Below, one piece after another: positions 2,161 to 64,000 of a stretch of 64,000 nt of DNA. Source of the stretch: Monosporascus cannonballus (lineage: Eukaryota; Ascomycota; Sordariomycetes; Xylariales); NCBI GenBank assembly GCA_004154925.1, contig QJNS01000119.1, positions 1 to 64,000 on the forward strand, written 5' to 3'. A program made the translations under genes and the position numbers. A model generated the notes under the pieces. It worked only from the letters and a program-made list of their open reading frames with translations. It ran no database searches and was not told where the DNA came from. Position 1 is the first letter of the stretch. Each line of letters begins with the position of its first letter.

Positions 2161-2740
2161 ATATCGGGTCGCATTAAAAAACCGATTAACAGAAAAACGA
2201 AAAAGCAAAATAACTTACTTAAACTTATTATTTTTCGAATTATAAATATATTTATATATTCTTATTGTATTTATTGCAGATTATTATTTTATCGTATTTT
2301 TTCGTCGAATTTCTCTCGATACGAAATATACGTAACGCGAAACTAAGGTTTTTGCGACGTTAATGGTTTTTTTATTTTTTAGATTAAAACGCTTATTTTT
2401 AATTACTTTAAGGTTAAAACGGAATTCGAAAAAGCTGAAAAAAGGCGGAATAAGCGTAGACCAAGAATCGCCCGCTTCGAAAATAAAAGAAATTATAGGC
2501 CTATTATGTAATACGTATATTATCCTGCGGATTTCGTTACCTGAAAAAGTTAAATAAGTTAAAACGTTAAAAAAATAAGTTAAATTAAAGGTTATCAAAG
2601 CTATATCGACAAAGGCCGTATCTTTTTTTAATTAATTTAATTTGGCATTTATTAATTAATTATTTATGAATTAAAGGACCTTTAATTTTATTAATTTCGG
2701 CGTTATTAGTAAAAGCTTTTTAATGGGCGTTAAACATTAA
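2161..2740 (+). pseudogene. E1 antisense reading frame (aORF), decayed
   Basis: Runs opposite to gag-pol, from just inside the 3' LTR towards the end of pol. The expected ATG is now ATA (2161), followed by Ser-Gly as in E4. The next 115 or so codons have only TAA/TAG stops explainable by C-to-T change; downstream part is frame-disturbed, and the end reads ...ISKSFLMGVKH and a stop at 2738-2740, aligning with GKSSLIGVRR in E4. The middle is rich in Lys and Arg. Function unknown; I recognise no domain. Confidence 0.65.
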
Positions 2741-5700
2741 TAAGACTTTTGGCGGGTTTTTAAGTATTTTCAAAATCCGAGTGCTTTTTTATATAATTAG
2801 ATATTAGACAAATCCGTTTTATTTTGGTATATCGAATTTTTTTATTTTATAAATTTTTTCGGTTTCCATTTTCATATCGTTTTATATTGTATATATTTTG
2901 ATTATATTTATTGTTAATTAAAAAGATGTAAGAAATTAAATAAAATTTGATTTTTCGTAAAAGTTCTAATTAGTAATTCTTTTTAAATTTCTTTAACGAT
3001 TTTATACGGACAGATATATTTAGAATCGAGTTTTTTATTACGTCGTTTTATTTAAATATTTTTTATGGCAAAGGAAACTATTTTCTCTTTTTTAAAAATT
3101 ATTTATTTTTTAATTGTTTTAGATTATAATACTTACTTATTTGATTTTGTACAAATTTTAGTTTTGTTTTCATTTCTTAATATAATTATCGTAAGTATTT
3201 TAACGTAAAAAGTATTTTAATATTTATTCAATCATTATTATGTATTTTTTTATAAATTTTTAAAATAAAACCAAAACTTGTATTTGCTAATATTATCTTA
3301 ATACTTTTGTAATAACTGGTATTATAAGTTAATTATGTAATTAATAATTTTTTAACTTAATTATTTTATGCGGAATTAATATAATATCGTAAGTAAATTT
3401 TTAAAGTTCAATTTTTGTAATTTATTTATTTATTTATTTGAGGCTTAAATATGCTAAATAATTTACAGTTTAAATTAATTTTATTATGAAGTTTTTTTAA
3501 AATATAAATATAAATATTAATACTTTATTTAAAATGGATTTTATTTGTAATGCCCATATATTAAAAATATATGTAAAAATATATATATATTATTTATTTA
3601 ATGTTTATATTTTTGTAATATCATAAGAAAAAAGAATATTTCGTAAATCGGTCGACGATTACGAAAATGCTATCGTAATATATTATTATAATTAAATCTT
3701 TTTATAAAGAAATTTTAATAATAGAATTAAATATAATTAAGTATTATCATTATTTTACGATTAATAATAATTATAATTTTTCGTATAGCTTATATCGTCG
3801 AGTTTTTATTTTGGCGCAAATATTATATTGCCGTATAATGTTTTATACCGTTAATTCTATTTTAAGAAAAAAATATATACGTTAAAGCTGTTTTAAGATT
3901 TAATAAATTCTTGGATATCCGTATAACTAATATTTATGTATATTTTATATTAAATCCTTTTAATATTCGTTTTAAAACTTATATTTTATTTACTTTATAA
4001 AGTCTTAAAAAACCGTCGTAATATTGTTAAAGTTTTTAATATATATTAAAAAGTACTGCTCGAGTTATTACCATTTATTGTAAGCCCAAATATCATTTTA
4101 TAATAATATCGAAAATTATATAATTAATTTTAACTAATTTCTTTTCAAAATTTGGTTACTTATTTAGGGTATTTATATTATTATTTTTTAATTTGTATCT
4201 GTGAATAATAATAAAATCGAAATTTGCTAATTTTTTTTGGCATAATAAAATTATCGTTTTATAAGTTCACTGGTCGTAATAAATCGGGTAAAATTTTATA
4301 ATCCGGGTACAATTTAACTTGGTATATATTTTCCTTTAAAATATATCTAAATTCTCGAAATACCATAATAATAGACATAAATTCCTCATTTAAAACACCG
4401 TAATTAAATTCAGTTCCTTTTAATTTATATGAAAGAAATACAATACAATATAATTTATTTTAATTATTTTGTTATCCGATTATTAGGCTTAATACGTAAT
4501 CCGAAATATTAATTTCTAGTTTAACAGGGCGGTTTAAATCGCATATAATTAATATCAATTCGTTAATAATTACATTTTTAATATTTTAAAATATATCTTC
4601 CGTATTTATTGTTTATTTAAACTTTTTATTTTCTAAAATTCGTTAAAATATAATTATTTTATTAAAGTTTCGAATAAATTTTCTATAATAATTTGCGAAT
4701 TTAAAAAATACATATATTTTTTTAACCGTCGTTAACGTTTGTAATTTTGTAATTTTAATAATATTTTTAAAACTTAATTTAATATATTTTATAGTAATAA
4801 TATATCCCAGATATTTTATTTTTTATACGTAAAATTAACTTTTTTTTTACGTTAACCAATAACTTTACATTTTAAAAAACTTAAAAAAAATTTATAAACA
4901 TATTTTATATATGCTTTTTCTATTTCTGAAAAAATTAAAATATTATCGAAGTAATATATAACGACAATAATAAGGTATTTTCGTACTACATAATTTACCA
5001 TCTGTTAAAAAATTCCTAATACGTTGGTAAATCATATTAATACAATCAAATACTTAAATAATCCGTATTTCGTTTTAAAAGTTGTTTTTTATTTATATTC
5101 TTTTAATTCTAATAAGATTATATTTTTGAAATCGAACATTATGAATTGTTTAATTCCGTAAAATCGGTTGTTTATTTCTATAATCAAAAATAATAATATT
5201 TAATTTTTAACGGTAATATCGTTTAATTATCGATAATTAATTATAAATTATAATTTTCCATTTTTCTTTAATATGAAAAACATTAAAAAGCCGGATTATA
5301 ATTTCGAAAATCAAATCCATTTTATTCTGTAACCAATATTCTAGATATTTTTTAAAAATACGTAATTCGTTTTTATTAACATTATAAATAAGATAAAATT
5401 TTACCGAAAATCCTTTTTAAAAAATATTTTATAATTTTATTATTATATTCTGAGATTTCTTTATTAAGCTTTTTTCTTAAAAAGTATATATATTTTTAAT
5501 ATTATAATAATATGCTAATTCGATTTTGTAACTTTTAAAATTATCATTTTAAATTATTAATTAGTTACTTTACTTTGGCTTCAATAATAATAACGATACG
5601 TTATATTTGTCTCTAATATTTATTCGTTTTCGTATATTTTATCCTTCTAAATAATAAAGTTTTTATTATATTCTTATATTTATATTTGTCATTATATTTA

Positions 5701-6978: not shown

Positions 6979-7365
6979 TGTGACGGCTAGGCGATTTAAC
7001 CAACCATTAAACCTTAGTCGTACGGGTTTATATTAGCAGGAGTATCGTAAAAATCTGAGCAATAAATACAATAACGTATTACGTCTCGTAATATTAAAGG
7101 TGCCTTGGGTAACGAATTATTATAATAAGCTGAAATTATCTAAATTATGGGAATAATAAACATAAATATCTTGATTTTGCTTGCTGGATTACGACCAATA
7201 AATTGGTAATCCGGCTTATTAGCTTACTACTAGTAAATTGATAATCCGGCTTATTGGCTTATTACCAGTAAGTTCGTAATTTATTACGTAACCTGCCTTA
7301 TCGCGTATTTGTAATTGGGTTATGACAAATCGTTTTTGGAAACCGTGGCTCGTTAGGCTATAATA
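6979..7365 (-). repeat. E2 3' LTR
   Basis: Starts TGTGACGGCTAGG and ends TATAATA (TCATGACA-like in the partner). Palindrome TTACGTAA at 7284-7291. The minus-strand frame at 7219-7434 is only this LTR read in a chance frame. Confidence 0.85.
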
Positions 7366-7439
7366 TATTCTCTCCTTTTCATAAATTTTACCCTTAAGAT
7401 TTCCTTTTTTTTTCAGTATGTTTTTTATATCCATTTAAT

Positions 7440-8009
7440 ATGTCTTTCGATATGTCCAAATGTCGTTTTTGCAAATACGAATAACGATTTACCCTGGCTA
7501 ATTTAATTAAGTTCGAAAGTTTTAATACGATATTTTGTTTTTTTTTCTTTTGTCTGGTAACTTAATTGCCAAATAATAAACGGAGTTCTTTGTTATAAGG
7601 AATATGTTCGTCGAGGTTGTTCGTACGATAAAACAAAAGTTCCTATTTTTATAATTTACCGTTATATCGCAAAGTTAAAAAAATTAAAATAGGAAAAATT
7701 AACGGCCAAAAAATCTTTATCCGAAGTTTTTGCGCGTTTTTTTATATATATCGTTAACGCTAATACTATTAATCTCAAGGTGCAAAATTTGTTAATCGTG
7801 CCCTTTAACTTTTGGACGATTTTAACGACCTTGTATAGTTAAAGTCAAAGTTTATGGTCGAGGTACAGGCTTTAGATAAGGTGGACGTTATTAATTGGTA
7901 TACGGTGGACCAAGGGCTTCCTGTTTTAGATTTTATGGACTAGAATACTATTATTTCGAGTGGCTCCGTTGTTGTTGGTAAAAATTCTTTAATAGGCGCT
8001 GGGCGCTAA
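7440..8009 (+). pseudogene. E2 aORF: antisense reading frame, complete in one frame
   Basis: Begins ATG TCT TTC (Met-Ser-Phe, 7440) just inside the 3' LTR and ends TAA at 8007-8009 after ...VVVGKNSLIGAGR. The 570 bases are exactly 190 codons with no frameshift; every internal stop is TAA or TAG, as expected from mutated CAA, CAG or TGG. Residues 18-40 align with E8 (Asn-Leu-Ile-Lys ... Ile-Phe-Cys-Phe) and the last 15 residues are the best conserved part across copies. Hydrophobic stretch at about residues 30-40, basic middle, acidic/aromatic C-terminal third. It lies opposite the non-coding 3' region of gag-pol and overlaps the end of pol tail to tail. Function unknown. Confidence 0.75.
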
Positions 8010-11000
8010 TAAGATTTTTGACGAATTCTTAAATATTTTCGAAATCCGGATATTTTTTCCACTTAATTAAATACTGGGTAAATCCATTTTGTTTTCGTAT
8101 ATCGAATATTTTTTTTTACTTTATATACTTATTCGTTTTTTACTTTTATATGGTTTTGCGACATATATATTTTGATTATATTTTCTATTAACTTGAGTAA
8201 AAAAAACGTAAAAACTAAGCAAAATTTAATATTCGGTAAAAATTCCAATTAATAATTATTTTTTAAGATTTTCTTAATGATTTTATATAGACTGATATAT
8301 TTAAAGTTAAGTTTTTTATTAGGTCGTTTTATTTAAATATTTTTTGTAGTAAAGAAAACTATTTTTCTTTTTTCGAAAGTTAATTTCTTTAATTCTTTTA
8401 ATTATAATATGTATTTATTTGATTTTGTGCGAATTTGAATTCTGTTTTTGTTTTTTTAATATAATTATCGTAATTATTTTAATACAAAAATTATTTTAAT
8501 ATTAATTAAATTATAATTACGTATTTTTCTGTAAATTTTTAAAGTAAAACCAAAATTTACGTTCGTTAATATCGTTTTGATATTTTCGTAATAACTGATA
8601 TTATAAATTAATTATGCGATTAATAATTTTTTAACCTAGCTATTCTGTTCATAATTAATATAATATCGTAAATAAGTTTTTAAAATTTAGTTTATCCGTT
8701 TTATTTATTTATTTATTTAAGGTTTAAATACGTTAAATAACTTATAATTTAAACCGATTGATATTATAAGATATTACCAAAGCTTAGATATAAATGTCGA
8801 TCTTTTATTTAGGATAACCTTTATTACTAATCCCTCTATATCGAAAATACAATTTTAAAAAATATGTATTATTTGTTCGGTGTTTATATAGTTATAATAT
8901 AATAAAAAAATAAGGAATTTGGTAAATCGATCGACAATTACGAAAATATTATCGTAATATATTCTGGTAATTGGAATTTTTAATACCAAAAGTTTAATAA
9001 TAAAGTTAAATATTACTAAATATTATGGTCCTTTTGCGATTAATAATAGCTGTAATTTTCCGAATAATTTATATCGTCGTGTTTTCGTTTTAGCGCAAAT
9101 AATATATTGCCGTATAATATTTTGTACTATTAATTTTATTTTAAAAAAGAAATATATATGTTAAACCCGTTTTAATATTTTATAGATTTTTGGATATTCG
9201 TATAACTAATATTCGTATATTTTTCGTATTAGATCTTTCTGGTATTTTTCTGGAATTTATATTTTATTTGTTCTTTAATTTTTGGGAAAACCATCGTTAC
9301 ATTACTGGATTTTCTAATATTGTTACGTTCAGAAGGGACTCCACTAGGCCCAAAGGAGGCCCAGGAAATTGGAAACGCTCGGGATCTCCAACTTCCATCG
9401 GATAAACCTCGGGTCTCTGTCAATCTCCAAAGACACCAGGAGACTCGTGGACGACAGATACCATGGTCTCTCGAGATCCCCAGAAACCATAAAAAACATA
9501 AAGGATAAAAATAATATATAAGGTTTGGGTTTTTTATGTAAATAATTATTTATTTAATTTTTTATTCCTTAATTATTAATTTAAGTTCTTAATTAAAAAT
9601 AATTATATTATTTTTTAATTAAAAAAATATCTTAAAATTTTTTTAACGAATATATTAAATTATTTTTTGCCTTATTATTACTTATAAATTAAAATTTTTT
9701 TCGGATATTATTTATATTTCTAAGTAAATATATAATAGGTTCGTTATAAAAATATATTAAAAGGTATAACCTAAATTATTGTAATTTATTACGGGCGTAA
9801 ATATCTTTTTTTGGTAATAACGAAATTATATCGCTAATTTTAATTAATTTGTTTTCGAAGCTTGATTATTTGCTTAAGATATTTGCTTTGTTATTTTCTG
9901 AATTCTTTTATGCATAATAACAAAGTCGATGTTCGTTAATTTTTCCACGTAACGAAATTATTATTTTGTAAATTTTCTGGTTATAATAAATCGGGTAAGA
10001 TTTTGATAATCCGTATAAATTTTTATTTGGTACAAATTTCCTTTGAGAAAATATTTAAATTCTCGAAATGCCATAATAATGGCCATAAATTCTTTATCCA
10101 GAATGTCGTAATTAAGTTCGATTCCTTTTAATTTGTACGAAAAAAATGCAATAAGGTATAATTTGCCTTAATTATGTTATTGTCCGATTATTACTTTTAA
10201 CGCGTAATCCGAAATATCGGTTTTTAGTTTGACGAAATGGTTTAAATCGTACATAATTAATATTAATTCGTTAATAATTGTATTTTTAATATCTCAAAAT
10301 GCTTTTACCATATTTGGCATTTATTTAAATCTTTTTTTCGTAAGGTTTATTAAGAGTATAATTATTTTATTAAAATTTCGAATAAACTTTTTATAATAAT
10401 TAACGAATCCAAAAAATGCTTATACCTTTTTAATTATTATTAACGTTTGTTATTTTATAATTATAACGATTTTCTTAAGACTTATCCTAATATATCCTAA
10501 AGTAATAATATATTCCAAATATTTTACTTTTTATTTATAGAACTAATTTTTTTCTATTAATAAATAACTTTGCGTTTTATAAAGCTTAAAAAACTTTATA
10601 AACGTATTTCACGTATATTTTTTCCATTTCTGAGAAAATAAAAATATTATTAAAATAGCAAACGAGGATAATATCGAGATATTCCTATAATATATAGTTT
10701 ATTATCTGTTAGAAAGTTATTAATACGTTTGTAAATCTTATTGGTATAACCAAATACTTAAATAATCCGTATTTCGTTTTGAAAGTTGTCTTTTATTCGT
10801 ATCCTTTTTTAATTTTAATAAGGTTATATTTATTTTTGAGATCGAATGTTATAAACTATTGGATTTCGTAAAATGTTTTTTTATTTCCGTAATTAAAGGT
10901 AATAACATTTAGTTTTTAATAATAATATCGTTTAATTGTCGATAGTTAACCATAAGTCGTAATCTTTTAATTTTTTAAGTACGAAAAATATAAGATATCC

Positions 11001-13911
11001 TGCTGGTGATTTCAAAGGTCGAATTTATCATTTTTGTAACCATTTTTCCAAGTATTTTCTGAAAGTACGTAATTTATTTCCGCTAAAATTGTAAACAGGG
11101 TAAAACTTTGTCGAAAATTCTTTTTTAAAAATTATTTCATAATATTATTCGCTATGTTCTAGTAATTTCGTATCGAACTTTTTTCTAAAAAGCTATTCGT
11201 ACTTATAATATTATAATAATATACTAGTTAGATCTTTTAACTTTTGGGGCTATTTTTATTTTAAATCGTTATTTAATTATTTTAATTTCGTTTTGATAAT
11301 AATAACGATACGTCGTATTTTTCTTTAATACTTATTTTTTTTATATTTTGTCCCTTTAGAGAATAAGTTTTTTATCGTGTCCTTATGTTTATAATCGTTG
11401 CCATTATTAATCGAATATTAAGATTTTAATTCTTTTTTTTTATCTATTAATAGAGTATAAGGTAAATTTTACCTGGCCAGTTTTTCCATTAATTAAGATT
11501 CCGTATTGGCGTATCCATGATAATTCTAAAATTATATTATAATTTTTAAATAAAAAGATATCGAAGTTAATTATTTAATATCGTCCTTAGATAAAAATCT
11601 CGAAATAATTAATTTCGCGTATAACATTTTCGTTATCGTAAGCAAATTCTTAACTTTTGGCATTTATCGTTATATAAAGTTTTAATTTGTATTTCTAAGA
11701 TAATTTAAGCTTATTAACCATAATCAATATAATATAATTCCCACCTAAAGTTCCGCAATCTATTATTGCGATATACTAATACGTTCTGATTCGTATATTT
11801 AAAGCAATTAGGTTATTAACGGTTTTTATTGTTACGTTTAAAGCCTTTTTTAGGAATTCTCTTTAATTCCTTTGAGTTTTGTCGTTCTGCGGCTCCTTTA
11901 TAAGCGATCTTTTTTTTAAAATTCTTATTCGAATCTATTAAACCTTATTTGTATTTCTTCGTTTAACGTATTAAGCTATTATATTTGTTATTATTGCCGG
12001 CATATTATTTCTTTTAATTATATTAGTTATTTTTAATTTTGCTCTAATGTTTTCCTTATTAAGTAAATTGTTTTCTTATATTTTTAACTACATCTTATTA
12101 TGTATCGTTTTAATTATCGTTTTAATATTTTTCTGTAAATTAACGTATTTTTTCCTTAATAACTTTTTTTCGTAAGGATTTGTAATAAACATTGATTGAA
12201 AATTAAGATCTGTAATAGTTTTTTTAGTAATATTTGTTTTATTATATATTAGATTAATTCCTTTTCCGTTTGGTAATCGTACTACTAGAAATAATAAAAG
12301 GGGGTTTTCTACGAGAATTATTTTTTTCGAGCCAGCTTTATATTTCGGCCAGCTGCTGAATATTTTCTGGGGCTATGAATCGAAAATATCGATATTATTA
12401 CTTATCGTTTTTATTATTTCCGATACGGTTTGGAAAATCGAATCCCTTATAATATATGCGGGTAATTTGTTCGTAAATTTATTGTTTTTATTTTTCGTAA
12501 TCGGGATATTTTCGTCGTCGACAGTATATGGCATATATTTTGCCGTATCGATCGGGGGTTCCGGGATAAACCTTTTTTGTCCAGTTTTAATGTTCGCGTA
12601 ATTATTCGTATATTATTTGTTATGTTCGCAATACCTATTAAGCCAGTTTTCTAGTTTTTCGCGTTTTTCGTCGAATTTCTTATCGTAACAGCCCTTATTA
12701 TGTTTTTTGCTATGGGAGACCTGGTATATATTTAGGCTAAATCGTATTAATGGATTTGTTTTCGTTTTTTTAGCTTTCTTTAAATTATCCTTCAGGTATA
12801 AGTTTTTAATTATTTTAACGTGATTTCTTGAGTACTTTATACCATATTGCTTGATGTTTTATTTTGTTGCAATTATAGCATTTGGTTTGGCTTTTATCCT
12901 TTTTGTAAATAACTTCTAGTTCCATGGATTCTGGTTTTATGCCGTAAAAAGTGTTTTTACGTCGAAAAACGCTAGTATTACTTACGTATCGGAGTTTGCT
13001 ATTATTTTTCCGTTTGGTGTCTTTAATGCGTTATACATATTGTCGATCGTTAATCTTAATTGTTATCGTAATATAATTCGATAAATAATTAGGCCGATTA
13101 AGCTTAAAAAAACCTTTTTTATATTTTCTTTTCAAGCCGTCGAAAAACTTGGCTATTAATGCTTTTTGTCCTTAATTTAGCTTAGCGGCTAGCTAAACCT
13201 GCATATTGTCGTAATTGGATACGGATCCTTTTTGTCGTAACTATTAAATCTGTATCTCGGTTTTTGTTTTTTCGTTTATTATTCCGAAAGCTTTTGTTAA
13301 TTTTTTTCGAATTATTCGTAATTACTATAAATTTATACCATTTTTGGGTTTCGTTTTTTAACTAGCAAAATAACGTATTTCTTTATAACAGGTTCAAATT
13401 AAATGGCCGTATTTCCAGTAAGTCGTCTAACTGCAAATTCGATTCGTATAATGGGCGTAATAAGTCGAATAAGAAAATATCCGAAATATATTCGGCATTA
13501 AGTTAAGAATAATTATAACTTGGTTAAGATTTTGTGGAAAAGTTTTGGTTTAGAAAGCTTAAGGACCTTTCCTAATTCCTTAGTGGAATTTAGCTGGATA
13601 ACCTGGCTTGTTCGAAGAGGCTGCTTAATTTTGGGAACTTTTTTTTAAGTCTTTTATAGGCAGCTTAAAGGGATATCGTAAGATCATTATTATCTCTCTT
13701 AAGCTAAATAATGCGTTCGTTTATGGCATCCAGGTATTACAAAATATTTTCGCGAAAAAAAACGAGGTTTTTCTTTTTTCTTCTCGGATTCCATTTTAAT
13801 CCGAGTAATCAAGGATTTGGTAAATGAGCTATTTGAGTTACTTACTAATAGATATAATATCGGTAATATTGTTCAAAGTTTGACAGGATTATTAAATAAG
13901 AGTTTATAACG
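8010..13911 (-). pseudogene. E2 gag-pol remnant
   Basis: Minus-strand polyprotein: gag nearest the 5' LTR (about 12800-13900) with a recognisable zinc knuckle, C-x2-C-x4-H with the last Cys mutated to Tyr (12836-12880, starting Cys-Tyr-Asn-Cys), then protease, reverse transcriptase (active site degraded to Tyr-Phe-Asn-Asn near 10640-10665), RNase H, integrase and chromodomain (about 8010-8100). Interrupted in the integrase-proximal part by LTR-B at 9321-9750. Stops throughout are of RIP type. Confidence 0.78.
9321..9750 (+). mobile_element. LTR-B solo LTR in E2
   Basis: Begins TGTTACGTTCAGAAGG, ends about TTATAAA, flanked by AATAT at 9316-9320 and 9751-9755. E2 pol reads through once it is removed. 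The first 180 bp are G+C-normal (AGAAGGGACTCC ... ACCATGG) and the rest is A+T-rich, a split also seen in the copy at 45352-45751, so it is native to the LTR. No internal region, hence a solo LTR. The small frames 9190-9508 here are shadows. Confidence 0.8.
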
Positions 13912-14317
13912 TATAACGGCTAAGCGGTTTAATTAATTATTAAATTTAAATTATACCGATTTATATTAATAAAACGGATTTATATTAATGAAAATATCGT
14001 AAAATTTTCAGTAATAAATATAATAAGGTATAGTATTTCGTAGTATTAAAAGTATTTTAAATAATGAATTATTATTATAAATTAAGATTATTTAAGTTAT
14101 AAGAATAATAAGTATATATATCTTGATTTTGTTTATTGGATTATTACCAATAAATTAGTGATCCGGCTCACTGGCTTACCACCAGTAAGTTAGTGATCCG
14201 GCTTACTGGCTTATTACTAGTAAGTTGGTGATTTATTACGTGACCTGCCCTACCGCGCATTTGTGGTTAGGTTATGACAGACCGATTCTAGAGACCGTGG
14301 CTCGTTGGGCCATGACA
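13912..14317 (-). repeat. E2 5' LTR
   Basis: Starts TATAACGGC (mutated TGTGACGGC), ends CATGACA. Contains two 35-bp U3 units and TTACGTGA at 14236-14243. Its right end is better preserved than the left copy at 7365. Confidence 0.85.
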
Positions 14318-30780: not shown

Positions 30781-31287
30781 TCGATTTAAAAAAAAAATCA
30801 CGGAGTAAAAATAATCAAACTTTATTGGTTTAACCACGTTCGACGAGTAATCGAACATAATTAATTCAACTACGCCCGACGAATAATCGAACGGGATAAG
30901 TTCGACCACTAATATAACTTCGTATATAAATACGTTTATCAATTTTCCAAATAACCTAAATAACACCGGCTTACAATAATAATTCGTTACCTAAAACATC
31001 TTTAGTATTACAAAACGTAACCAATTATTATATCCATTACTGTCAGCTAGCAGGGGGTGCTCTAGCACCCCATATACGGAAGATTCCCTCTGATCGGAAC
31101 ATATATGTTCCGGGACTAGATCACCTTAAAGTGCAGTGCGCGTTCTAGAGCACCTGCAACTAGTCATCAATACACACACAACTGATGTCCCTTATATCTG
31201 ACAGTTACTCCAAATCCCACGATATTCCTGCCAACATAAGCCCGTACCACTTAGGTTTAATAATTAGTTAAACCCTTAGCCGTCACA
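30780..31287 (+). repeat. E3 3' LTR, U3 of a different type
   Basis: Ends TTAGCCGTCACA at 31287 with the conserved R-U5 block, but its U3 does not match the E3 5' LTR: it holds two GTTCGACGARTAATCGAAC-like palindromic units (30838-30856 and 30874-30892). The usual TGTTATGACC start is not found, so the U3 is probably truncated. Interrupted by the MITE 31040-31205. Confidence 0.65.
31040..31205 (+). mobile_element. Harbinger-type MITE, copy 2, TTA duplication
   Basis: 166 bp with terminal inverted repeats CTGTCAG...CTGACAG, flanked by TTA at 31037-31039 and 31206-31208. The host LTR is continuous without it. A hairpin GGGGTGCT-CT-AGCACCCC lies near the left end. Three-base TTA/TAA duplications are typical of the PIF/Harbinger superfamily; there is no coding capacity. 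Confidence 0.82.
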
Positions 31288-31328
31288 GGTATATACATAT
31301 ATTCCATTAATTATATTAATTTAATGCT

Positions 31329-31355
31329 ACAACTGATATGTCTTATATTCGACAA
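31329..31355 (+). mobile_element. Fragment of the Harbinger-type MITE, copy 3
   Basis: ACAACTGATATGTCTTATA followed by TTCGACAA matches the right end of the MITE at 31040-31205 (ACAACTGATGTCCCTTATATCTGACAG). Its left part is missing. Confidence 0.5.
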
Positions 31356-31460
31356 CTCAGGCTCTGTTCGCTCGTTATATAGGATTTGATTGGTTAATTC
31401 TTAGCGTAACACAGAAGTACATTGAAAAAAAAATTGAGAACGAGCTAGCAGACGCCTGAG
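31356..31460 (-). mobile_element. MITE-2 copy 3
   Basis: 105 bp with 21-22 bp inverted ends: CTCAGGCTCTGTTCGCTCGTT and, inverted, CTCAGGCGTCTGCTAGCTCGTT. Carries the shared middle GGATTTGATTGGTTAAT. Forms the left edge of the methyltransferase island. Confidence 0.7.
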
Positions 31461-31677
31461 CTCCCGGAGATAATGCTGAGTGAGTTGTTGTAGTGCCGCC
31501 TGACTCTAGTTGTCATCCTTGCTCTTAACAAGTTGAGTTTGAATGGAGGGGATATTGTACTGGTTAATGAGAGGATGGGATAGCAAGAGCGGCAACGGCT
31601 CACTCCGAGGGGGCGGTTTGGGGAGGGGCCTCGGGCTTCTGACCGTACACCATGTGGCTGGCAGATGATAACATTGA

Positions 31678-33254
31678 TTAACCGACAAAGCTTCGTTCTA
31701 TTATTGCGGGAAGCACGTACTGGTAGCAAAAGCCTTGGTTTTTGGGATTACGGACGGCAGCACGCATCTTAGCAACAAGAACCTGCACCTCCTCGAAGCT
31801 CCAGCCCAGGACCTGGCCAATCGGGTATATGGCAAAGCCGTCCAGACTTAGGTCCAAATAGTATCCGCAGTACATGCCTTGCTGCTTAAGATTGTCGTCC
31901 TTGGGCCAACCGGTGAGAGGAATCTTGAACTTCTTGTGGACGACGCCGGCGAAGCCGGCGTCTTCTGCCCAGGACTTCATGTTTTGTGTGACCCTGAACG
32001 TACGGTCCAGCTTGTCGCCTGCGTCATAGAACACTTTTGCCCATTGCTTGAAAACGCTGGAGTGGATTGTCAGCGGAGTGCCTGTTTTGGCGTAGGAGCT
32101 AAGGAACGATGGGATGACTGCATGGCACGGCAGTTATTCACAGAATCGTGGCGCTTTTCAATACCTACTGATCTTCACCGATTTCGAGGTTTGGGTCCTC
32201 GGAGCGCATCTCGATGTCAGGCTCTAGATGCTGGAACCAACCGCCGGGCTTTAGAAACTTATACAGCTGGCAGTAAAGCTTTGGCCAGTCCTTAATAGCG
32301 CCGTACATGTAGCGAACGTGGATGAAGTCGAATGACTCGGGCTTATATGTCCAGTCCAGTTGCGCATCCTCGATTTCAAAGCGCAGGTTTGGCGGCACCC
32401 AGGTTGGTTGCGTGGGCGAGATGTCAATGCCGATAACTTCAGCGGAGGGATACTCGTCTGCCACATCACTGAAAGCCGCTTAGATGAGGAGGTCAGAAGA
32501 CGGGTTATCGACAGGGTATACTGACATGGCCCAGATGCCTGTTCCGGTGCCGACATCCAGGATGCGCTGGGTATTTGCAGTTAATTGACTCGGTGTCGCA
32601 CAGCAGGTGATTGGTGGGATTGACTACCTGTGGATTGTCCCCGATTGGTGCGATGAATAGCTTGTTGCCCAACATCATCGTCAACCATTGATGTCTGTCA
32701 GTATGAAATGGTCAGTATGGGGTCCTCATTTGGTGATATATCGAGGGAGTTATACGCTATATCGAAGGCTTCCAAATGTCTGTCATCGTTCGGGGCCCTG
32801 GTAGTAGTGTAAGAATCGCCACCGTGGCTGGTCATCAAGTTTGAGAAGGGAGGGTCTATGTACCAGTATTCGGTCGTTTTAGAATTCTGATAGGTGCGGC
32901 CATGAATGTTGCGGTACTCCAGGAGACTAGCCGTGATGGATGCCGTTGACTCTGCTCGGCTAGGTAATGAACTGTCAGCAAGTATCCTGGGGGCATTACC
33001 AGGCTAGATATAAACAGAATGCGATCGTCACGGCGGCGGGCGAGACTTGCCTCTCTGTATCGACAGAGGAGTCACCGTCATCAGCGCCGACAAGTGCTGG
33101 GTCCTAACTGTCTGGGTTAGTCCCAATGAAACGTAAATTCAGGGTCCGTAGACAAAGCCGACGGGGGGAAACGGGAGGGGAGGGGGCGTTGGAAGGGCAG
33201 ACGAGCACTGACAGCTTCGATAGTCGCTGGGTTCTCTCCCGAAGTAGTCGACAT
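31678..33254 (-). CDS. LaeA-like SAM-dependent methyltransferase, intact, eight exons
   Basis: Predicted to transfer a methyl group from S-adenosylmethionine; the family includes LaeA and LaeA-like regulators of fungal secondary metabolism, but substrate and role here are unknown. Exons (minus strand): 33254-33213, 33103-33051, 32971-32864, 32797-32756, 32694-32628, 32566-32526, 32468-32169, 32098-31678. They sum to 1074 bases, 357 codons plus stop, with phase kept at all seven junctions. Introns are 57-109 bp; six are GT-AG and intron 2 is GC-AG (AG|GCAAGT). The protein has a Ser-Ile-Thr-Ala-Ser-Leu-Leu-Glu-Tyr-Arg start motif, SAM motif I Leu-Asp-Val-Gly-Thr-Gly-Thr-Gly (residues 107-114), acidic motif II Ile-Gly-Ile-Asp-Ile-Ser-Pro (130-136) and Lys-Pro-Gly-Gly-Trp (191-195). 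Start ATG has A at -3. No RIP damage, unlike everything around it. Other frames here (31445-32556) are shadows. Confidence 0.88.
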
Positions 33255-33500
33255 TTTGATGGCTAGGAAAATAGTCTTAGCCTACGACAGCAGATGTAGG
33301 AGGATGGATGCTGAAAAGGTGCTCAATATGAAGCGTAAGACGCAATGGAGAAAATGAAGTGCGATGTGGTGAAAGGGAAAGAGGGGTATTGCCTCGTTTC
33401 AACATAGTAGGCTTATCAAGAAGTCGACAAATGTTATTATGTCGAAAAATCCGCTTAGTTAAAAACCAACTTCCGTATTTGAATCTGGCACGTCCCATAT
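33255..33500 (-). promoter_or_regulatory. Upstream region of the methyltransferase gene
   Basis: On the minus strand, C/T-rich stretches (for example CCCCTCTTTCCCTTTCACC near 33390) lie within 150 bp of the start codon, a common feature of filamentous-fungal promoters. No clear TATA box. The minus-strand frame 33277-33498 ends just upstream and is not supported as a gene. Confidence 0.35.
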
Positions 33501-33594
33501 AGGGAAAGTAAAGGTAGCCGTACTATGCGACCCCTACGGATAAATCAGTACCCTAGACCGCTGCCCATTTTGTGGCGCGTACGAAACCTGGTAA

Positions 33595-33690
33595 TGTGGG
33601 TTAGCCAGGTGTGCTATAGCACACCAAAAAGGGAAAGGTCATCTTTTAAACACACATATGAATTGGCTGACCTCGGACCCACCTAATTAA
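33595..33690. repeat. Small palindrome-bearing element at the island edge
   Basis: Contains the perfect 18-bp palindrome GGTGTGCTATAGCACACC (33608-33625). GTGGGTTAGCC on the left and GGCTGACCTCGGACCCACC on the right are partly inverted copies, so this may be a MITE of about 95 bp. Only one copy is visible in the window. Confidence 0.35.
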
Positions 33691-33699
33691 TATATACAC

Positions 33700-40342: not shown

Positions 40343-40955
40343 ATGTCGGGTTATATTGCTAAAAGTTGTCGTCAAGATATTTTTACCATTTGTCGGCAAA
40401 ACATTTTTTTAATTTTTAACGATTTTATTTTTGAAATTATGGCATATATTTTGTATTTTTTTAAGAGTTGGAAATGCGAAATAATGAAAAACGTTTTAAA
40501 ATATAAAATTTACGTTAAACATAAATATTTTTGTAATAGGATTAACGTTTTCTTTTCTTTCTGGAAAACATTTATACCGAGAATTAACGCCTAAAACGAA
40601 AAAAGATTCTTGTAAAAAAACGTTTTTTGGAGTTGCAAAAGCGTTATTAGTAGAAGATAAATCAGGTTATCGCGCGTTTAATCCGTTTTCGGAAATAAAA
40701 AGCTTTTTTTCGTTTAAAAAATTAAAAATAATATAATGGAAATTGCAATTACATAAGGAATTAAAGGAACAAAAATACTAGGAACAGGCTATTGCCGAAG
40801 CTTCCATAGCCGCATTAATTCCTCCCGCTAATCCCGTAAACTGGTCTAGTATCGGCGATATCGATTGGTCCATTAAAAATATTAATTGGGACGCGATTAT
40901 TTCCGGTGGTTCCGTCGTTACTGGTAAAAGTTCTTTAATAGGCGTTAGGCGCTAA
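40343..40955 (+). pseudogene. E4 aORF: antisense reading frame
   Basis: Starts ATG TCG GGT (Met-Ser-Gly) about 70 bp inside the 3' LTR; the first 83 codons (40343-40594) are stop-free. After a stop and at least two frame changes it resumes as a basic segment, then Glu-Leu-Lys-Glu-Gln-Lys, then Asn-Trp-Ser-Ser-Ile-Gly and Asn-Trp-Asp-Ala, ending VVTGKSSLIGVRR and TAA at 40953-40955. The tail matches E2, E5 and E8. It overlaps the 3' end of pol by about 40-60 bp on the opposite strand. Function unknown. Confidence 0.72.
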
Positions 40956-46000: not shown

Positions 46001-47489
46001 GTTTAGAATATAATACAGTAAATATCTTAAGTAAGTAATTAAACTTCGAAAAGAAATTAATTAAAATTAACTATATAATTTTTAATACTATTATAAAAAC
46101 ATATTTACGCTTACGACAAATTACAACGATTCGGGCAGTACCTTTTAATATGTATTAAAAATTTAGTAATATAACGACGGCCTTTAAAAAACTAAAAAAC
46201 GAATAAAATATAGATCTCGAAAAAATGCTAAAGAGATTTAGTACGAAACATATATGAATATTAGCTATATGGATATCCAGGAATTCACAAAACTCTTAAA
46301 CGGTTTTAATGCATATATTTTTTTAAAATAAAATTAACGGTACAAACGTTATACCGCAACACGATATTTGCGCTAAAACGAAAACACGATAACATAAGCC
46401 ATACGGAAAATTATAGCTATTACTAATCGTAAAACAAATATAATATTTAGTTATATTCGATTTTATTATTAAATTTCCTATATTAAAAAGTTTAGTTACA
46501 AAAATATATTACGATAATATTTTCGTTATCGTCAACCGATTTACGAAATCTTCTTATTTTTTACCATATTATAAGCACATAAATGCCGTACAAATAATAA
46601 ACATTTTTTTAAACATATTTTTAATATATATAAATTATCAATAAAAATTATTTTAAACAGAAGATCGATATTTGTATTAAAATTTTAACAAAATCTGATA
46701 ATATAAATTAACCTAAACTCTAAATTATTTAAGGCATTTAAACCTTGAACAAATAAATAAATAAAACGAATAAATCAAACCTTAAAAACTTACTTACGGT
46801 ATTATATTAATTATGAATAAAATAACTCGGTTAAAAAATTACCAATCGCATAATTAACCTATAATATTAGCATTTACGAAAGCATTAAAATAATATTAAC
46901 AAACGTAAATTTTGGTTTTACTTCAAAAGTTTATAAAAAGTATGTAATAATAATCCGATTAATATCAAAATAATTTTTATGTTAAAATAAGTACGATAGC
47001 AATACCAAGAAATAAAAATAGAATTAAAATTTGTACGTAACTAAATAAGCATATATTATAACTAGAAAAAGTTAAAAAAAATTAATTTTTGAAAAGGGGA
47101 AAATAATTTTCCTTGTTATTAAAAATATTTAAATAAAATAACCTAATAAAATATTCGATTTTAAATGTATTGGTTCATATAAATTTATCAAAAAAATCTT
47201 AAAAAATAATTATTAATTAAAATTTCTACTAAAAGTTAAATTCCATTTAATTTGTGACGTTTCTTTATTCGAATTAGTAACGGATATAATCAAAATATAT
47301 ACGACATAAAACGATATGGAAATGGAAAACGAACAAATACACGAAGTAAAAAAAGTTTTTAATATGCGAAAATAAAACGAACTTACTTAATATCTAATCA
47401 AATAAAAAAAGTACCTGGATTCCGAAAATACCTAGGAACCCGTTAAGAACCTTATTAACGCCCAGCACCTATTAAAGAATTTTCATTAG
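43061..47489 (+). pseudogene. E5 pol remnant with C-terminal chromodomain
   Basis: Protease, reverse transcriptase, RNase H, integrase and chromodomain order of chromoviruses. Readable landmarks: the RT start (Tyr-Leu-Glu-Asn-Arg-Leu-Gln ... Gly-Tyr-Pro, near 44477-44550), the RT active site Tyr-Phe-Asp-Asn (44882-44893, second Asp lost), and the chromodomain at 47343-47472 (Tyr-Leu-Asp-Ser-Glu-Asn-Thr-stop-Glu-Pro, where the stop replaces the conserved Trp). Stop after Asn-Phe-His at 47487-47489. Interrupted by LTR-B at 45352-45751. Non-functional. Confidence 0.82.
45352..45751 (+). mobile_element. LTR-B solo LTR in E5
   Basis: About 400 bp, starting TATTACGTTTAGAAGGG (mutated TGTTACGTTCAG), flanked by ATTAT at 45347-45351 and 45752-45756. 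Compared with the copy at 9321, almost all differences in the G+C-rich first 180 bp are C/T or G/A. Confidence 0.8.
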
Positions 47490-48074
47490 CAGCGACGGGT
47501 ACGTCCTAGTTAACGGTCGACCAATTAATAGCCGAAATATCGAGCCAATCGGCCGCGGCCTGCGCTAACGTAACAGCCGTAATGGCGGCCTTTAATTATT
47601 TTTGTTTTTAACGCTTTTATTTCTTTAATTTATTTAATAATTAAAACCTACGTTATACCATAGTAACGTCTTTTGAACGAACCAGCACCTTTTATTTACG
47701 CAGGCGAATAAAACGAAAAAAAAGCTTTATTTATTTTTCCCTAATAACGACCTTAAGCCTTAAAGTAAAGCCGTTCAAAGTTTAACAATTACTTTTTAAT
47801 AAGCGTTTTTTCGCGCTTTAAACGTTAATATTTTTAACAAATATTCTGCAAAAAGAAAATTGATACGCCGGTACTATTATAAAACCGACCTTGATTAATA
47901 CATTCCTTATATCTTAAAATATTTTCCATTATTTCATACCTTATGTTTTTCGAAAAAATAATAAAAACAAGGCATAATTTCGTACCCAAATTTGTTAAAG
48001 ACTTTTACGAAATCAGTACGACGAACGGTAAAAAAACGAAGTACACGACGAATCTTAAAAATACGAAACGATAT
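47455..48074 (-). pseudogene. E5 aORF: antisense reading frame
   Basis: Minus strand, start codon now ATA (48074-48072) followed by Ser-Phe-Arg-Ile-Phe-Lys-Ile-Arg-Arg, the same as E8. Ends ...NENSLIGAGR and a stop at 47457-47455. Central parts are frame-disturbed. The tail overlaps the end of pol (stop 47487-47489) by about 35 bp. The plus-strand frame 47992-48192 is its shadow. Confidence 0.68.
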
Positions 48075-59171: not shown

Positions 59172-59785
59172 ATGTCGTTTCGCATTTTTAAAATTCGTCG
59201 TTTTCCCCGTTTTTTTACCGTTTATTATATTAACCTTATAAAAGCCTTTAACGAATTTAATTACGAAATTATATTTTGTTTTTATTATTTTTCGAAAAAC
59301 ATAAAATGTAAAATAATGGAAAATGTTTTAAGGTATAAGAAATATATTAATTAAGGTTAATTTTATAATGGTACCGGTGTACTTATTTTTTCTTTATAAC
59401 ATATTCGTCGTAAGCATTAACGTTTAGAACGCGAAAAAACGTTTGCCGAAAAGCGATTATTAAAGTTTTAACGGCTTTACTTTAAAGCTTAACGTAAATA
59501 TTAAGAAAAAATAAATAAAACTTTTTTTATTTTATTCGTTTACGTAAGCAAAAAGCGTTAATTCGTTCGAAAAACGTTATCATAATATAACGTAAGTTCC
59601 AATCGTTAAACGAATTAAAGAAATAAGAACGTCGGGAATAAAAATAATTAAAGGCTGCCGTTACGACTGCCACGTTAATATATGCGGCCGATTGGCCCGA
59701 TATTTCGGCTACCGATTGGTCGGCTATTAATTAGGACGCGTCCGTTATTGCTAATAAAAGTTTTTTAATAAACGTTAGGCGCTAA
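59172..59785 (+). pseudogene. E8 aORF: antisense reading frame
   Basis: ATG TCG TTT CGC at 59172, stop-free to 59354, then continuing in the same frame with only TAA stops through Arg-Leu-Glu-Arg-Glu-Lys-Thr-Phe-Ala-Glu-Lys-Arg to about 59525, where a one-base shift leads into Phe-Ile-Arg-Leu-Arg-Lys-Gln-Lys and on to Ala-Asp-Trp-Pro-Asp-Ile-Ser-Ala-Thr-Asp-Trp. Ends ...ANKSFLINVRR, TAA at 59783-59785. Strongly basic with a hydrophobic stretch at residues 30-40. Overlaps the end of pol by about 40 bp. Confidence 0.75.
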
Positions 59786-62700
59786 TAAGGCTCTTGGCAG
59801 ATTCCCAGGTATTTTCGAAATTTAAGTACTTTTTCCATTTAATCAGACCTGAGGTAAGTTTATTTTATTTTCGCATATCGAGGATTTTCTTCATTTCGTA
59901 TACTTATTCGTCTTTTATTTCCATATCGTCTTATGCCGTATATATTTTGATTATATTGGTTATTTACTTAAGTAAAAAAACATAAAAATTAAATGAAATT
60001 TAACTTTTGGTAAAAGTTTTAATTGGTAATTATTTTTTGAAATTTTTTTAGTGATTTTATATGGACCGATATATTTAAAAACAAATTTTTTACTAGATTA
60101 TTTTGTTTAAATATTTTTAGTAACGAAAAAAACTATTTCCCCCTTTTCGAAAGTTAATCCCTTTAAACCTTTCTGGTTATAATATTTATTTATTTAATTC
60201 CGTACGAACTTTATTTTTATTTTTATTTCTTAATATAGCTGTTATAATTATTTTGATATAAGGATTACTTTAATATTAATTAGACTATCGTTACGTATTT
60301 TTTTGGTAAATTTTTGAAATAAAACCAAAATTTGCGTTTATAGGTATTATTTTGATATTTTCGTAATAACTGGTATTATAAGCTAATTATACGATTAATA
60401 ATTTCTTAACCCAGTTATTTTGTTCGTAATTAATGTAATATCGTAAGTAAATTTCTAAAATTTAATTCGTTTATTTTATTTATTTATCCGTCTTTGGTTT
60501 AAATACGCTGGATAATTTATAATTTAGGCCGATCTATGCCATAAGGCTTTGCTAAAATTTTGATATAAAGGTTGATTCTTTATTTGATATAATTTCTATT
60601 AATAATTCGTATATGCTAAAAATATGTTTAAAAAAATGTATGCCAGTTGTTCGGCGTTTATATCCTTATGATATGGTAGAAAATAGGAAAATTTCGTAAA
60701 TCGGTCGACGATTACGAAAGTGCTATCGTAATATATTCCTGTAGCTGAATCTTTTGATATACGAAGTTTAGTAATAAAGTCGAATGTAATTAAGTACTAT
60801 AGTCGCTTTGTAACTGGTAATGGCTATAATTTTCTATATGGCTTATATCGTCGAATCTTTGCTCTAGCGCAAATATCGCATTGCCGTATAACTTTTTATA
60901 CTGTTAATTTTATTTTAAAAAAAGAATATATGCGTTAAAATCGCTTTAAGGTTTTGTAAGTCCTTAACTATCCGTGTAACTGATATTCGTATATTTTTCG
61001 TATTAAACCCTTTTGGTATTTTTTTGGAACTTGCATTTTGTTCGTTCTTTGATTTTCTGGGAGACTGTTGTTATATTATTAAATTCTTTGATACATATTA
61101 TTAAGTGTTGCCGAATTGTCGCAATTTGCCGTACGCGTAAATATCCTTTTGTAGTAATATCAAAAATTATATAACTAATTTTGACCAATTTTTTTTCGAA
61201 GTTTGGTTACTTGCTTAAAGCATTTGCTCTGCCGTTTTCTAATTTTTTCTTGTAGATAATAACGAAGTCGAAATTCGCTAATTTTTCTGTATATCAAAGC
61301 TGTCGTTTTGTAAGTTCCCTGGTTGTGGTAAATCGGGTAAGATTTTGATAATCCGTATAAACTTTAACCTAATACAAATTTCCCTTTAGGAAATGCCTAA
61401 ATTCCTCAAATGCCATAATAATGGCCATAAATTCCTTATCTGGGATGCCGTAGTTAAATTCGGTTTCTTTTAATTTGTACGAAAAGAATGTAATAAGTTA
61501 TAATTTATCTTAATTATTTCGTTATCCGATTATTGCGCTTAACGCGTAATCCGAAGTATTGGTTTTTAGTTTAACGAGACGGTTTGGATCGTACATAATT
61601 AGTACTGGCTTGTTAGTAATCGTATTCTTAATATCCCGGAATATGTTTTCCGTATTTGGCGTCCATATAAATTGTTTTTTTCGTAAAATTCGTTAAAGAT
61701 ATGGTTATGCTGTTAAAGTTTCGAATAAACTTCCTATAATAGTTAATGAATTTAAGGAATACCTGTACCTCCTTAACCGTTATTGGCGTTTGCCATTTTG
61801 TTATTGTAGCGATTTTCTTAAAGTTGATTTTGAAATGTTCTGAGATAATAATATATCCCAGTTATTTCATTTCCTATATATAAAATTAACTTTTTTCTAC
61901 GTTAATAAATAGCCTTACGTTTTATAAAGCTTAAAAAACCTTATAAACGTATTTTATGTATGCTTTTTTTTATTTTTAAAAAATAAGAATGTCGTCGAGA
62001 TAGCAAACGACGAAAACATCAAGGTATTTTCGTAACACATAATTAACTATTCGCTAAAAGGTTATTAATACGTTTGTAAGTCCTATTGGTGTAACTAAAT
62101 ATTTAAATAATCCGTATTTCGTCCTGAAAGTTATTTTTTATTCGTATTCTTTTTTAATTCTAATAAGATTATATTCATTTTTGAGATCGAATGTTATGAA
62201 CCATTTGGTTTCATAAAATCCGTCTTTTATTTCCGTAATTAGGGGTAATGGTATTTAGTTCTTAATAATAATATCGTTCAGTTATTAATAATTAACTATA
62301 AGTCCTAATTTTCCGTTTTTCTTAGGTACAAAAAACATTAAGTAACCTTTTGGTGATTTCGAAAGTCGAATTTATCCTTTTTGTAACCGATTTTCCAGGT
62401 ATTTTCTGAAAGTACAGAATTCGTTTCCGTTAAAGTTATAAATAAAATAAAACTTTGTCGAAAATCCTTTTTGAAGAATTATCTCATAATCTTATTCGTT
62501 ATATTTTAGTAATTTCGTATTAAGTTCCTTTTTGAAAAGCTGCTTATATCTGTGGTATTATAATAGCATATTGGTTAAATTATCCAACTTTTGGGGCTAT
62601 TGTTATTATTATTTTAAATTGTTATTCAGTCGCTTTAATTTCGTTCTAATAATAATAACGATATATCGTATTCTTTTTTGATATCCGTTTTTTTTCTTAT

Positions 62701-64000
62701 GTCTTGTTCCTTTAGGTAATAAGATATTTATTATGTTCTTATGCCTGCATTTGTTACCATTATCGATTAAATATTAAGACCTTAATTTCTTTTTTTATTT
62801 ATTAACAGGAAATAAAACGAGTTTTACCTGGCCAGCTTTTCCGTTAATCAAAATTCCGTATTGGCATATCTATGGTAATCTTAAGATTATATCGTAATTC
62901 CCGAATAGAACGATATCGAAATTAATTGTTTAATATCGTCCTTTAATAAAAATTTCGAGATAATTAATTTTGCGTATGATTTTTCCGTTATTATAAACGA
63001 ATTCCTAATTTTCGGCATTCGTTATTATATAGGGTACTAACTTATATCTCTATGGCAATTTAAGCTTATTAACTATATCTGGTACAATATAATTTCCGCC
63101 CAGAATTCCGTAATCTATTATTGCAATATACTAATACGTTCCGATTCGTACGTTTAAAATATTAAGGTCGTTAATATTTCCTATCGTCGCGTTTAAAGCC
63201 TTTTTCGGGAATTCCTTTTAACTCCTTTAAGTTTCGTTATTTTACGGCTTTTTTATAGATAACTTTTTTTTTTAATTTTTATTCGAATTTGTCAAACTTT
63301 GCTTATATCTTTTCGTTTAACGCATTAAGCTGCTATATTTATCATTATTATCGGCGTACTATTCCTTCGAGCCGTATTAATTATTTCTAATTATTTTGCC
63401 CTTCTTTTTCTTATCGAATAAATTATTTTTTTATATTTGCAACTATATCTTATTATGCGTTATTCTGGCTGTTATTTTAAAGTTTTTTTATAAACTAACG
63501 TATTTTTTTAACAATTTTCCTTTTTTGGGGATCTATAATAAATACCAACTAAAAATAAAGATTCGTAATAATTTTTTGGTAATGCTTTTTTACCGTACGC
63601 TAAATTAATTCCTTTTCCATTTAGTAATTACATTATCCATAATAATAAAAGCGGTTTTTTTACGGGCATTATTTTTTTTCGGGCCAATTTTTTATTTCGG
63701 CCAACTGTTAAATATTTTTTAAGGCTATGGTTCGAAAATATCGATACCATTATTTATCATCCTTATTATTTCCGGTACGGTTTGGAAAATAAAATCTCTT
63801 ATAGTACGTACGGGTAATTCGTTCGTAAATATGCTATTTCCATTTTTCGTAATCGGAATATTTCCGTCGTCGACAATATATAATATATATTTTGCCGTAT
63901 TAATTAGGGGTTCCAGAATAAACTTTTTCTGTCCAGTTTTGGTATTTGCGTAATTATCCTTATAATATCTTTTATTATATTCGCGATATTTATTAAGCCA
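59745..64000 (-). pseudogene. E8 pol remnant with intact RT active site
   Basis: Minus strand, from the chromodomain region (about 59790-59890) through integrase and RNase H to reverse transcriptase. The active site reads Tyr-Leu-Asp-Asp-Ile-Leu-Ile-Phe, with Tyr-Leu-Asp-Asp at 62002-61991. Remaining stops are RIP-type, so the copy is young or lightly mutated but not coding. The plus-strand frames 59794-59985 and 63396-63608 and the minus-strand frame 61003-61188 are chance or fragments. Confidence 0.82.

What the first reader, a model, noticed from the sequence alone, without database searches (positions are those of the whole stretch)
7440..8009. A conserved antisense gene (aORF) in a fungal Ty3/gypsy family
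Between pol and the 3' LTR, on the strand opposite gag-pol, five copies carry the same reading frame: E1 2161-2740, E2 7440-8009, E4 40343-40955, E5 complement 47455-48074, E8 59172-59785. E2 is exactly 190 codons with no frameshift and only RIP-type stops. Starts are Met-Ser-Phe or Met-Ser-Gly, ends are (G/N)(K/E)(S/N)SLIG(V/A)(R/G)R or close variants, and the stop falls inside the 3' end of pol on the other strand, so the two genes meet tail to tail. Antisense reading frames in this position are known in some plant Tat-lineage gypsy elements; I do not know of one described in fungal chromoviruses. The product could regulate the element or be an accessory protein.
Basis: partly seen in the sequence, partly recalled or inferred. 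Interest (0 to 1): 0.88.

Follow-up and report, generated by a model that had tools for sequence, protein, structure and literature searches.

The report
Swappable antisense gene in fungal retrotransposons
Decayed copies of a fungal retrotransposon carry, on the strand opposite their main genes, a gene conserved as protein that is linked as one interchangeable block with the neighbouring half of the terminal repeat, and its predicted zinc-cluster protein likely regulates the promoter expected in that half.

Summary
The antisense gene is real. Across 59 natural copies its frame shows purifying selection (transversion-only omega 0.36 [0.30-0.44]; 1.26-1.91 in four other frames), and two partial proteins of another fungus, Thyridium curvatum, are related to it (E 3.9e-22). 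The intact relative has six cysteines with the spacing of fungal Zn(II)2Cys6 domains; our copies hold Cys, or Tyr (its expected RIP product), there (52-55 of 60). Nor is an antisense gene in a fungal gypsy element new: brtn of Botrytis Boty elements was published in 2011. What looks new is the architecture. The U3 half of the LTR and the antisense gene form one block in several deeply diverged types (Mantel r 0.87, 0 of 1000 permutations), while pol and R/U5 do not follow the types (nearest pol neighbour shares the type in 15 of 44 copies, 13.3 expected). My reading: an element-encoded regulator inherited with its own target promoter. Transcription, zinc, DNA binding and regulation are untested.

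The parts
7440..8012 (+). antisense gene, copy E2 (type A), broken by stops and by two cancelling shifts; 190 codons plus stop
7537..7626 (+). six-cysteine (Zn2Cys6-like) region of E2, in the +1 frame; placed from the match of L021 residues 32-101 to 7534-7743
   Evidence: arithmetic from the match
6979..7365 (-). 3' LTR of element E2 (element reads on minus); edges placed by eye
7140..7365 (-). U3 part of the LTR in E2; varies with the gene type
7155..7168 (-). TATA-like motif at the border of the variable block (place read from the sequence)
7330..7345 (.). candidate regulator site near the U3 end, CCG-N10-CCG in other copies, TCG-N10-CCG in E2; function inferred
7368..7380 (-). polypurine tract of the element (pyrimidines on +)
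7140..7980 (.). interchangeable block U3 + antisense gene in E2 (-300 to +540 from the gene start)
59172..59788 (+). antisense gene, copy E8 (type B), frame changes near 59525
59754..59900 (-). chromodomain at the end of pol, E8; overlaps the antisense gene tail to tail
47455..48074 (-). antisense gene, copy E5 (type B), frame changes
40343..40955 (+). antisense gene, copy E4 (type C), frame changes
2161..2745 (+). antisense gene, copy E1, a further diverged type

Best explanation
This is an antisense accessory gene of a fungal chromodomain gypsy retrotransposon, conserved as protein and linked as one interchangeable block with the U3 half of the LTR; its product, predicted to be a Zn(II)2Cys6-like coiled-coil protein, likely binds the U3 of its own type and regulates its transcription. 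Shown here: the selected frame; the six-cysteine spacing in an intact relative and its Cys/Tyr trace in the decayed copies; the tail-to-tail overlap with pol; the block of U3 plus gene in several diverged types; the absence of a link to pol or R/U5. Inferred: that the gene is transcribed from an antisense promoter in the 3' LTR; that the cysteines bind zinc; that the protein binds DNA (paired CGG triplets near the U3 end are a candidate site); and that the block is exchanged by template switching. The element RNA has U3 and this gene at its 3' end and R-U5 at its 5' end, so one switch in the 3' part of pol would exchange this block. The types would then be matched pairs of regulator and target.
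For: Purifying selection in the antisense frame, omega 0.36 [0.30-0.44] against 1.26-1.91 in four other frames. Relatives in Thyridium curvatum, E 3.9e-22 and 2.8e-13, with C-x2-C-x6-C-x8-C-x2-C-x6-C (0 of 300000 shuffles). Cys or Tyr at these six columns in 55, 53, 52, 53, 55 and 55 of 60 copies. Long helix predicted behind it. Between-type distance 2.3-14.7 times the within-type distance from -300 to +540 and 0.8-1.1 times outside. Mantel U3-gene r 0.87 (0 of 1000), R/U5-gene -0.07, pol-gene 0.06. Nearest U3 neighbour has the same type in 44 of 44, nearest pol neighbour in 15 of 44 (13.3 expected). The border in the LTR lies at a TATA-like motif, median -274 to -286. CCG-N10-CCG at a fixed place in 44 of 65 copies.
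Against: No RNA, binding or expression data. Pfam Zn_clus scores 12.6 bits against a cut-off of 21; Pfam finds nothing in L079; the cysteine region is predicted with low confidence and Foldseek finds nothing. The E1 type seems to have other loop lengths (by eye). Linkage of U3 and gene could follow from the order of the element RNA alone. The CGG pair could survive because RIP spares CpG, and it is absent from that place in 21 of 65 copies. R/U5 and the pol overlap correlate weakly (r 0.27, 42 of 1000). Part of the pol distances (above 0.13) may be misalignment and may inflate the pol signal.
Confidence: 0.5

Rival explanations
1. The gene encodes a real accessory protein that acts elsewhere in the life cycle (RNA export, particle assembly, nuclear entry or choice of integration site), and its link with U3 is only a by-product of both lying at the 3' end of the element RNA.
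For: U3 and the gene are neighbours, and different types are too diverged to recombine inside the block. A plant antisense product is reported as nuclear and its role is open (PMC7264820, passages).
Against: U3 and gene stay together in 44 of 44 copies although a more alike stretch of about 120 nt lies between them (between-type 0.089-0.120). The Zn2Cys6 spacing points to DNA binding.
Confidence: 0.35
2. What matters is the antisense RNA (double-stranded RNA, small RNAs); the reading frame is a relic.
For: Antisense RNA roles are discussed for plant and animal elements (PMC7264820, passages).
Against: Omega 0.33 within and 0.36 between types in this frame only, apart from the frame that shares its wobble position; six conserved cysteine columns.
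Confidence: 0.08
3. The open antisense frame is a shadow of a coding sense strand (an extension of pol).
For: One sense frame with its wobble base on the same positions also shows omega below 1 (0.50).
Against: That frame has the most stops of all six (18.0 per copy; the antisense frame 8.9 without its last four codons, the next lowest 10.8). The Thyridium proteins match the antisense product.
Confidence: 0.02

Closest known systems
brtn of Boty-like retrotransposons, Botrytis cinerea (Zhao et al. 2011, Virology 417:248; not held; known here from citing papers only)
   Same: Additional antisense gene in a fungal gypsy element with chromodomain pol, between pol and the 3' LTR (PMC7264820, PMC4227169 passages).
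   Different: Sequence relation untested (BRTN not available here). The passages that I saw mention no zinc cluster and no linkage with U3 types.
Antisense aORFs of plant Tat/Retand elements (Grande, RIRE2, Retand; TRP28 domain)
   Same: Position and orientation; predicted DNA binding (PMC11963269 abstract and passages; PMC7264820 passages).
   Different: Non-chromovirus plant elements. TRP28 (PF04195) did not appear in the Pfam scans of 16 copies, of L079 and of the Thyridium proteins.
U3 subfamilies of the crapaud element, Podospora (PMC10787394: abstract, passages, sections 8 and 12)
   Same: Chromodomain gypsy element; many subfamilies differing in U3 upstream of the TATA box; internal region does not follow them.
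   Different: The word antisense does not occur in that text and two ORFs are drawn; whether crapaud has this gene was not tested. Here the variable block includes the gene.
HBZ of HTLV-1 (listing and abstracts only)
   Same: Antisense viral gene for a transcription regulator that acts on its own LTR: what this may work like.
   Different: bZIP protein of an animal retrovirus; no bZIP match here; regulation not shown here.
Fungal Zn(II)2Cys6 regulators (Gal4 type; consensus recalled)
   Same: Spacing of six cysteines, followed by a coiled coil.
   Different: Pfam cut-off not reached; encoded by a retrotransposon.
Immunity regions of lambdoid phages (recalled)
   Same: Regulator and target sites exchanged as one block with sharp borders on a common backbone.
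   Different: Unrelated elements and proteins; no regulation shown here.

Membership tests
brtn-like antisense genes of fungal gypsy elements | antisense gene between pol and 3' LTR of a fungal gypsy element with chromodomain | tested here: met
brtn-like antisense genes of fungal gypsy elements | sequence homology to BRTN | not testable with these tools
brtn-like antisense genes of fungal gypsy elements | antisense transcript | not testable with these tools
   no RNA data
Zn(II)2Cys6 domain | C-x2-C-x6-C-x(5-12)-C-x2-C-x(6-8)-C | tested here: met
   P0001 2-6-8-2-6; Cys/Tyr columns in copies; the E1 type deviates by eye
Zn(II)2Cys6 domain | Pfam PF00172 above its gathering score | tested here: not met
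   12.6 bits against 21; no match in L079
Zn(II)2Cys6 domain | fold | tested here: inconclusive
   cysteine region at low pLDDT; no Foldseek match
Zn(II)2Cys6 domain | zinc and DNA binding | not testable with these tools
   needs protein
Chromovirus (gypsy with chromodomain) | RT, RNase H, integrase and chromodomain in one element | tested here: met
   E8 pieces: RVT_1, RT_RNaseH, Integrase_H2C2, SH3_Tf2-1, Chromo, all above cut-off; no gag match in the pieces tried
Retand-type antisense ORF | TRP28 domain PF04195 | tested here: not met
   absent from Pfam scans
HBZ-like antisense regulator | bZIP domain | tested here: not met
   no bZIP match
crapaud-type U3 diversification | U3 types upstream of the TATA box, not followed by the internal region | tested here: met
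   kinship with crapaud itself not tested

The most novel reading that the evidence does not exclude
The U3 plus antisense gene block is a self-recognition cassette: each type codes for a repressor or activator that acts only on its own U3, so elements fall into regulatory groups and exchange them by recombination, as lambdoid phages exchange immunity regions. This would be group-specific copy-number control in a eukaryotic retrotransposon and could explain the unexplained U3 subfamilies of fungal elements such as crapaud.
Probability: 0.3. Interest if true: 0.92.

Novelty: new variant of a known kind. Interest (0 to 1): 0.72.

Why it matters
Antisense genes in LTR retrotransposons have been known for years without a function (PMC7264820, PMC11963269), and U3 subfamilies of a fungal element have been described without a settled cause (PMC10787394). 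In this family the two are one block, with a predicted DNA-binding protein next to its possible target. That makes both open questions testable: does the protein of one type act on the U3 of its own type and not on another? If so, retrotransposons carry exchangeable regulator-target pairs.

Tried and rejected
Protein database searches with a RIP-mutated copy (L021) and with a profile of 16 copies found nothing; a less mutated copy (L079) found the Thyridium proteins. Pfam gave no credible match for 16 copies and none for L079. PDB sequence searches gave only weak matches without bearing on the case: best E 0.76 with the profile, best E 0.014 to an MtrB entry over residues 105-154 of L079. Foldseek found nothing; the scan of viral contigs none; Rfam none in the window. 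No gag match in pieces of 11900-14200 and 62700-64000. TGA rarity as proof of RIP-type stops was rejected because another frame is as low. Frame by length alone was rejected: only 28 of 65 first-set copies have a length divisible by three (the 60 sequences less the 32 loci of the second set). Whether the Thyridium gene is nearer to one type than another could not be judged, because the degree of RIP confounds the scores.

Rows dropped: the 37 of 65 first-set copies with lengths not divisible by three and the E2 copy itself (L001); all 32 loci of the second set were kept (59 in all; 60 with E2). The second set was picked from protein matches, not at random. In one search, 15 of 59 copies lacked enough flank, including both copies of one type; 44 remained (10, 19, 12 and 3 per type). 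Literature searches; I read listings of at most 20 papers each and passages of six papers. None showed a zinc-cluster antisense gene or U3 and an antisense gene exchanged together; most subscription journals are not in that library.

Full report
WHAT WAS CLAIMED.

WHERE IT LIES. The window is part of contig C32 of an 88.8-Mb assembly in 618 contigs and is mostly AT-rich. The five regions are related at the DNA level. DNA searches of the whole assembly gave 40 scored matches each for E2, E8, E4 and E1, out of 712, 917, 803 and 321 first-look candidates; by eye I saw no place shared between these lists. I call the E2, E8/E5 and E4 families types A, B and C; E1 is a further type. Protein searches with single natural copies (X at stops) gave 150 scored matches each of 1709, 2328 and 2098 candidates, many of them nearly full length in one frame; the rows that I read all carry stops, and I found no open copy.

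ANATOMY. On the other strand, pieces of E8 match RVT_1, RT_RNaseH, Integrase_H2C2, SH3_Tf2-1 and a chromodomain above Pfam cut-offs, so the element is a chromodomain gypsy element; no gag match was found in the pieces tried. The chromodomain match ends at 59754 and the antisense frame at 59785, so the two genes overlap tail to tail by at least 32 nt, or about 59 nt if pol stops at 59727-59729, which the mutated frame does not settle. The LTR of E2 runs by eye from about 6979 to 7365, with a polypyrimidine stretch on + next to its inner edge, the complement of a polypurine tract. The antisense start lies about 74 nt inside. The start codon is ATG or ATA in 62 of 65 copies.

THE WINDOW COPIES ARE MORE BROKEN THAN STATED. 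In E2 the stretch 7534-7743 matches the family best in the +1 frame, so shifts cancel out; E4, E5 and E8 also change frame; E1 was not found by nine protein queries. Six E1-type copies fetched later show a similar layout by eye, apparently with other loop lengths.

IS IT CODING? RIP makes transitions, so I counted transversions only, on pairs of natural copies. Over 1200 pairs between transversion clusters (59 copies) the antisense frame has omega 0.36 (95% bootstrap 0.30-0.44), four other frames 1.26-1.91, and the sense frame sharing the wobble position 0.50. The last has 18.0 stops per copy, the most of all frames; the antisense frame has 8.9 without its last four codons, the next lowest 10.8. 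Within clusters the antisense value is 0.33. Of 593 stop cells, terminal stops included, 479 have a source codon of the RIP kind in another copy; TGA rarity is not specific to this frame.

A RELATIVE ELSEWHERE. A less mutated copy finds two partial uncharacterized proteins of the sordariomycete Thyridium curvatum, E0L32_012438 and E0L32_012437, E 3.9e-22 and 2.8e-13. They overlap by 42 identical residues and lie on contigs of 694 and 745 nt, so they look like two parts of one gene; their genomic surroundings cannot be seen. The first has exactly six cysteines with spacing 2-6-8-2-6, the Zn(II)2Cys6 arrangement (consensus recalled); 0 of 300000 shuffles give the pattern. In 60 natural copies these six columns are Cys or Tyr in 55, 53, 52, 53, 55 and 55; TGY to TAY is the change that RIP makes (TG is CA on the other strand). 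Pfam Zn_clus scores 12.6 bits, below its cut-off of 21, so I say Zn2Cys6-like. A long helix is predicted with high confidence (residues 75-129 of one part; 2-84 of the other, folded without an alignment), then a disordered tail; the cysteine region itself is predicted poorly and Foldseek finds nothing.

THE BLOCK. I followed the transversion distance along 44 copies of four types. From -300 to +540 relative to the antisense start, that is from the middle of the LTR to the end of the gene, copies of different types differ 2.3 to 14.7 times more than copies of one type. Outside, in the outer LTR and from +540 into pol, the ratio is 0.8-1.1. Because types were defined from the gene, the independent tests are these. 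Distances in U3 follow distances in the gene (Mantel r 0.87, 0 of 1000 permutations as high), while R/U5 and pol do not (-0.07 and 0.06). The nearest neighbour in U3 has the same type in 44 of 44 copies, in pol in 15 of 44 (13.3 expected) and in R/U5 in 18 of 44. Pol carries its own signal (two halves r 0.80, though part of it may be misaligned copies), and copies with nearly equal pol (0.014) can carry very different blocks (0.295). One weak correlation lies outside this picture: R/U5 with the pol overlap, r 0.27, 42 of 1000. A TATA-like motif lies at a median of -284, -286 and -274 in types A, B and C (found in 60 of 65 copies), so the diverged part of the LTR is the part upstream of it, U3. 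Near its end a pair of CGG triplets, CCG-N10-CCG on +, occurs at a fixed place in 44 of 65 copies.

HOW IT LIKELY WORKS. Inferred: the gene is transcribed from the 3' LTR; the product binds DNA through the cysteine cluster as a coiled-coil dimer and acts on the U3 of its own type. The RNA of an LTR element carries R-U5 at its 5' end and U3-R at its 3' end, so one template switch in the 3' part of pol exchanges U3 and this gene together. That explains both borders of the block. It also means that linkage alone does not prove co-adaptation, which is the main rival.

WHAT IS KNOWN. An antisense gene, brtn, in Boty-like elements of Botrytis cinerea was published in 2011; I saw only its title and descriptions in citing papers (passages of PMC7264820, PMC8365987, PMC4227169, PMC5987419). 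Plant Retand elements have antisense ORFs with TRP28 (abstract and passages of PMC11963269). In Podospora, crapaud elements have 14 subfamilies that differ mostly in U3 upstream of the TATA box while the internal region does not follow them; the authors leave the cause open and the word antisense does not occur in the text (abstract, passages, sections 8 and 12 of PMC10787394). HBZ of HTLV-1 is the closest analogue in working (abstracts in the listing). In my searches I found no paper that ties a U3 type to an antisense gene.

VERDICT. A real gene of a known kind with a new architecture. The interchangeable U3-plus-gene block is the part worth following.

Noticed in passing
window 32165-32479, minus strand, in the GC-richer island 31000-34000: Host-like methyltransferase exon (Methyltransf_23, E 7.6e-13) inside an island of normal GC between the AT-rich repeats; neighbouring open frames may be further exons.
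   Followed up: partly
window 9327-9490: A GC-richer stretch lies inside the otherwise AT-rich pol of E2; it looks like a later insertion or a less mutated piece.
   Followed up: no
about -46 to -63 before the antisense start in 52 of 65 copies; E2 near 7392: A motif CCCTTAAGATTT with an imperfect inverted repeat partner lies just inside the polypurine tract in all three types.
   Followed up: partly
L101-L106 and E1 2161-2745: In most E1-type copies the N-terminal and C-terminal halves of the gene appear in different frames, in L103 in one frame; whether this is an old shift of that type was not settled.
   Followed up: no
L008 553-1076 and 1501-2070: Two copies of the antisense gene lie head-on within about 1 kb in opposite orientation.
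   Followed up: no
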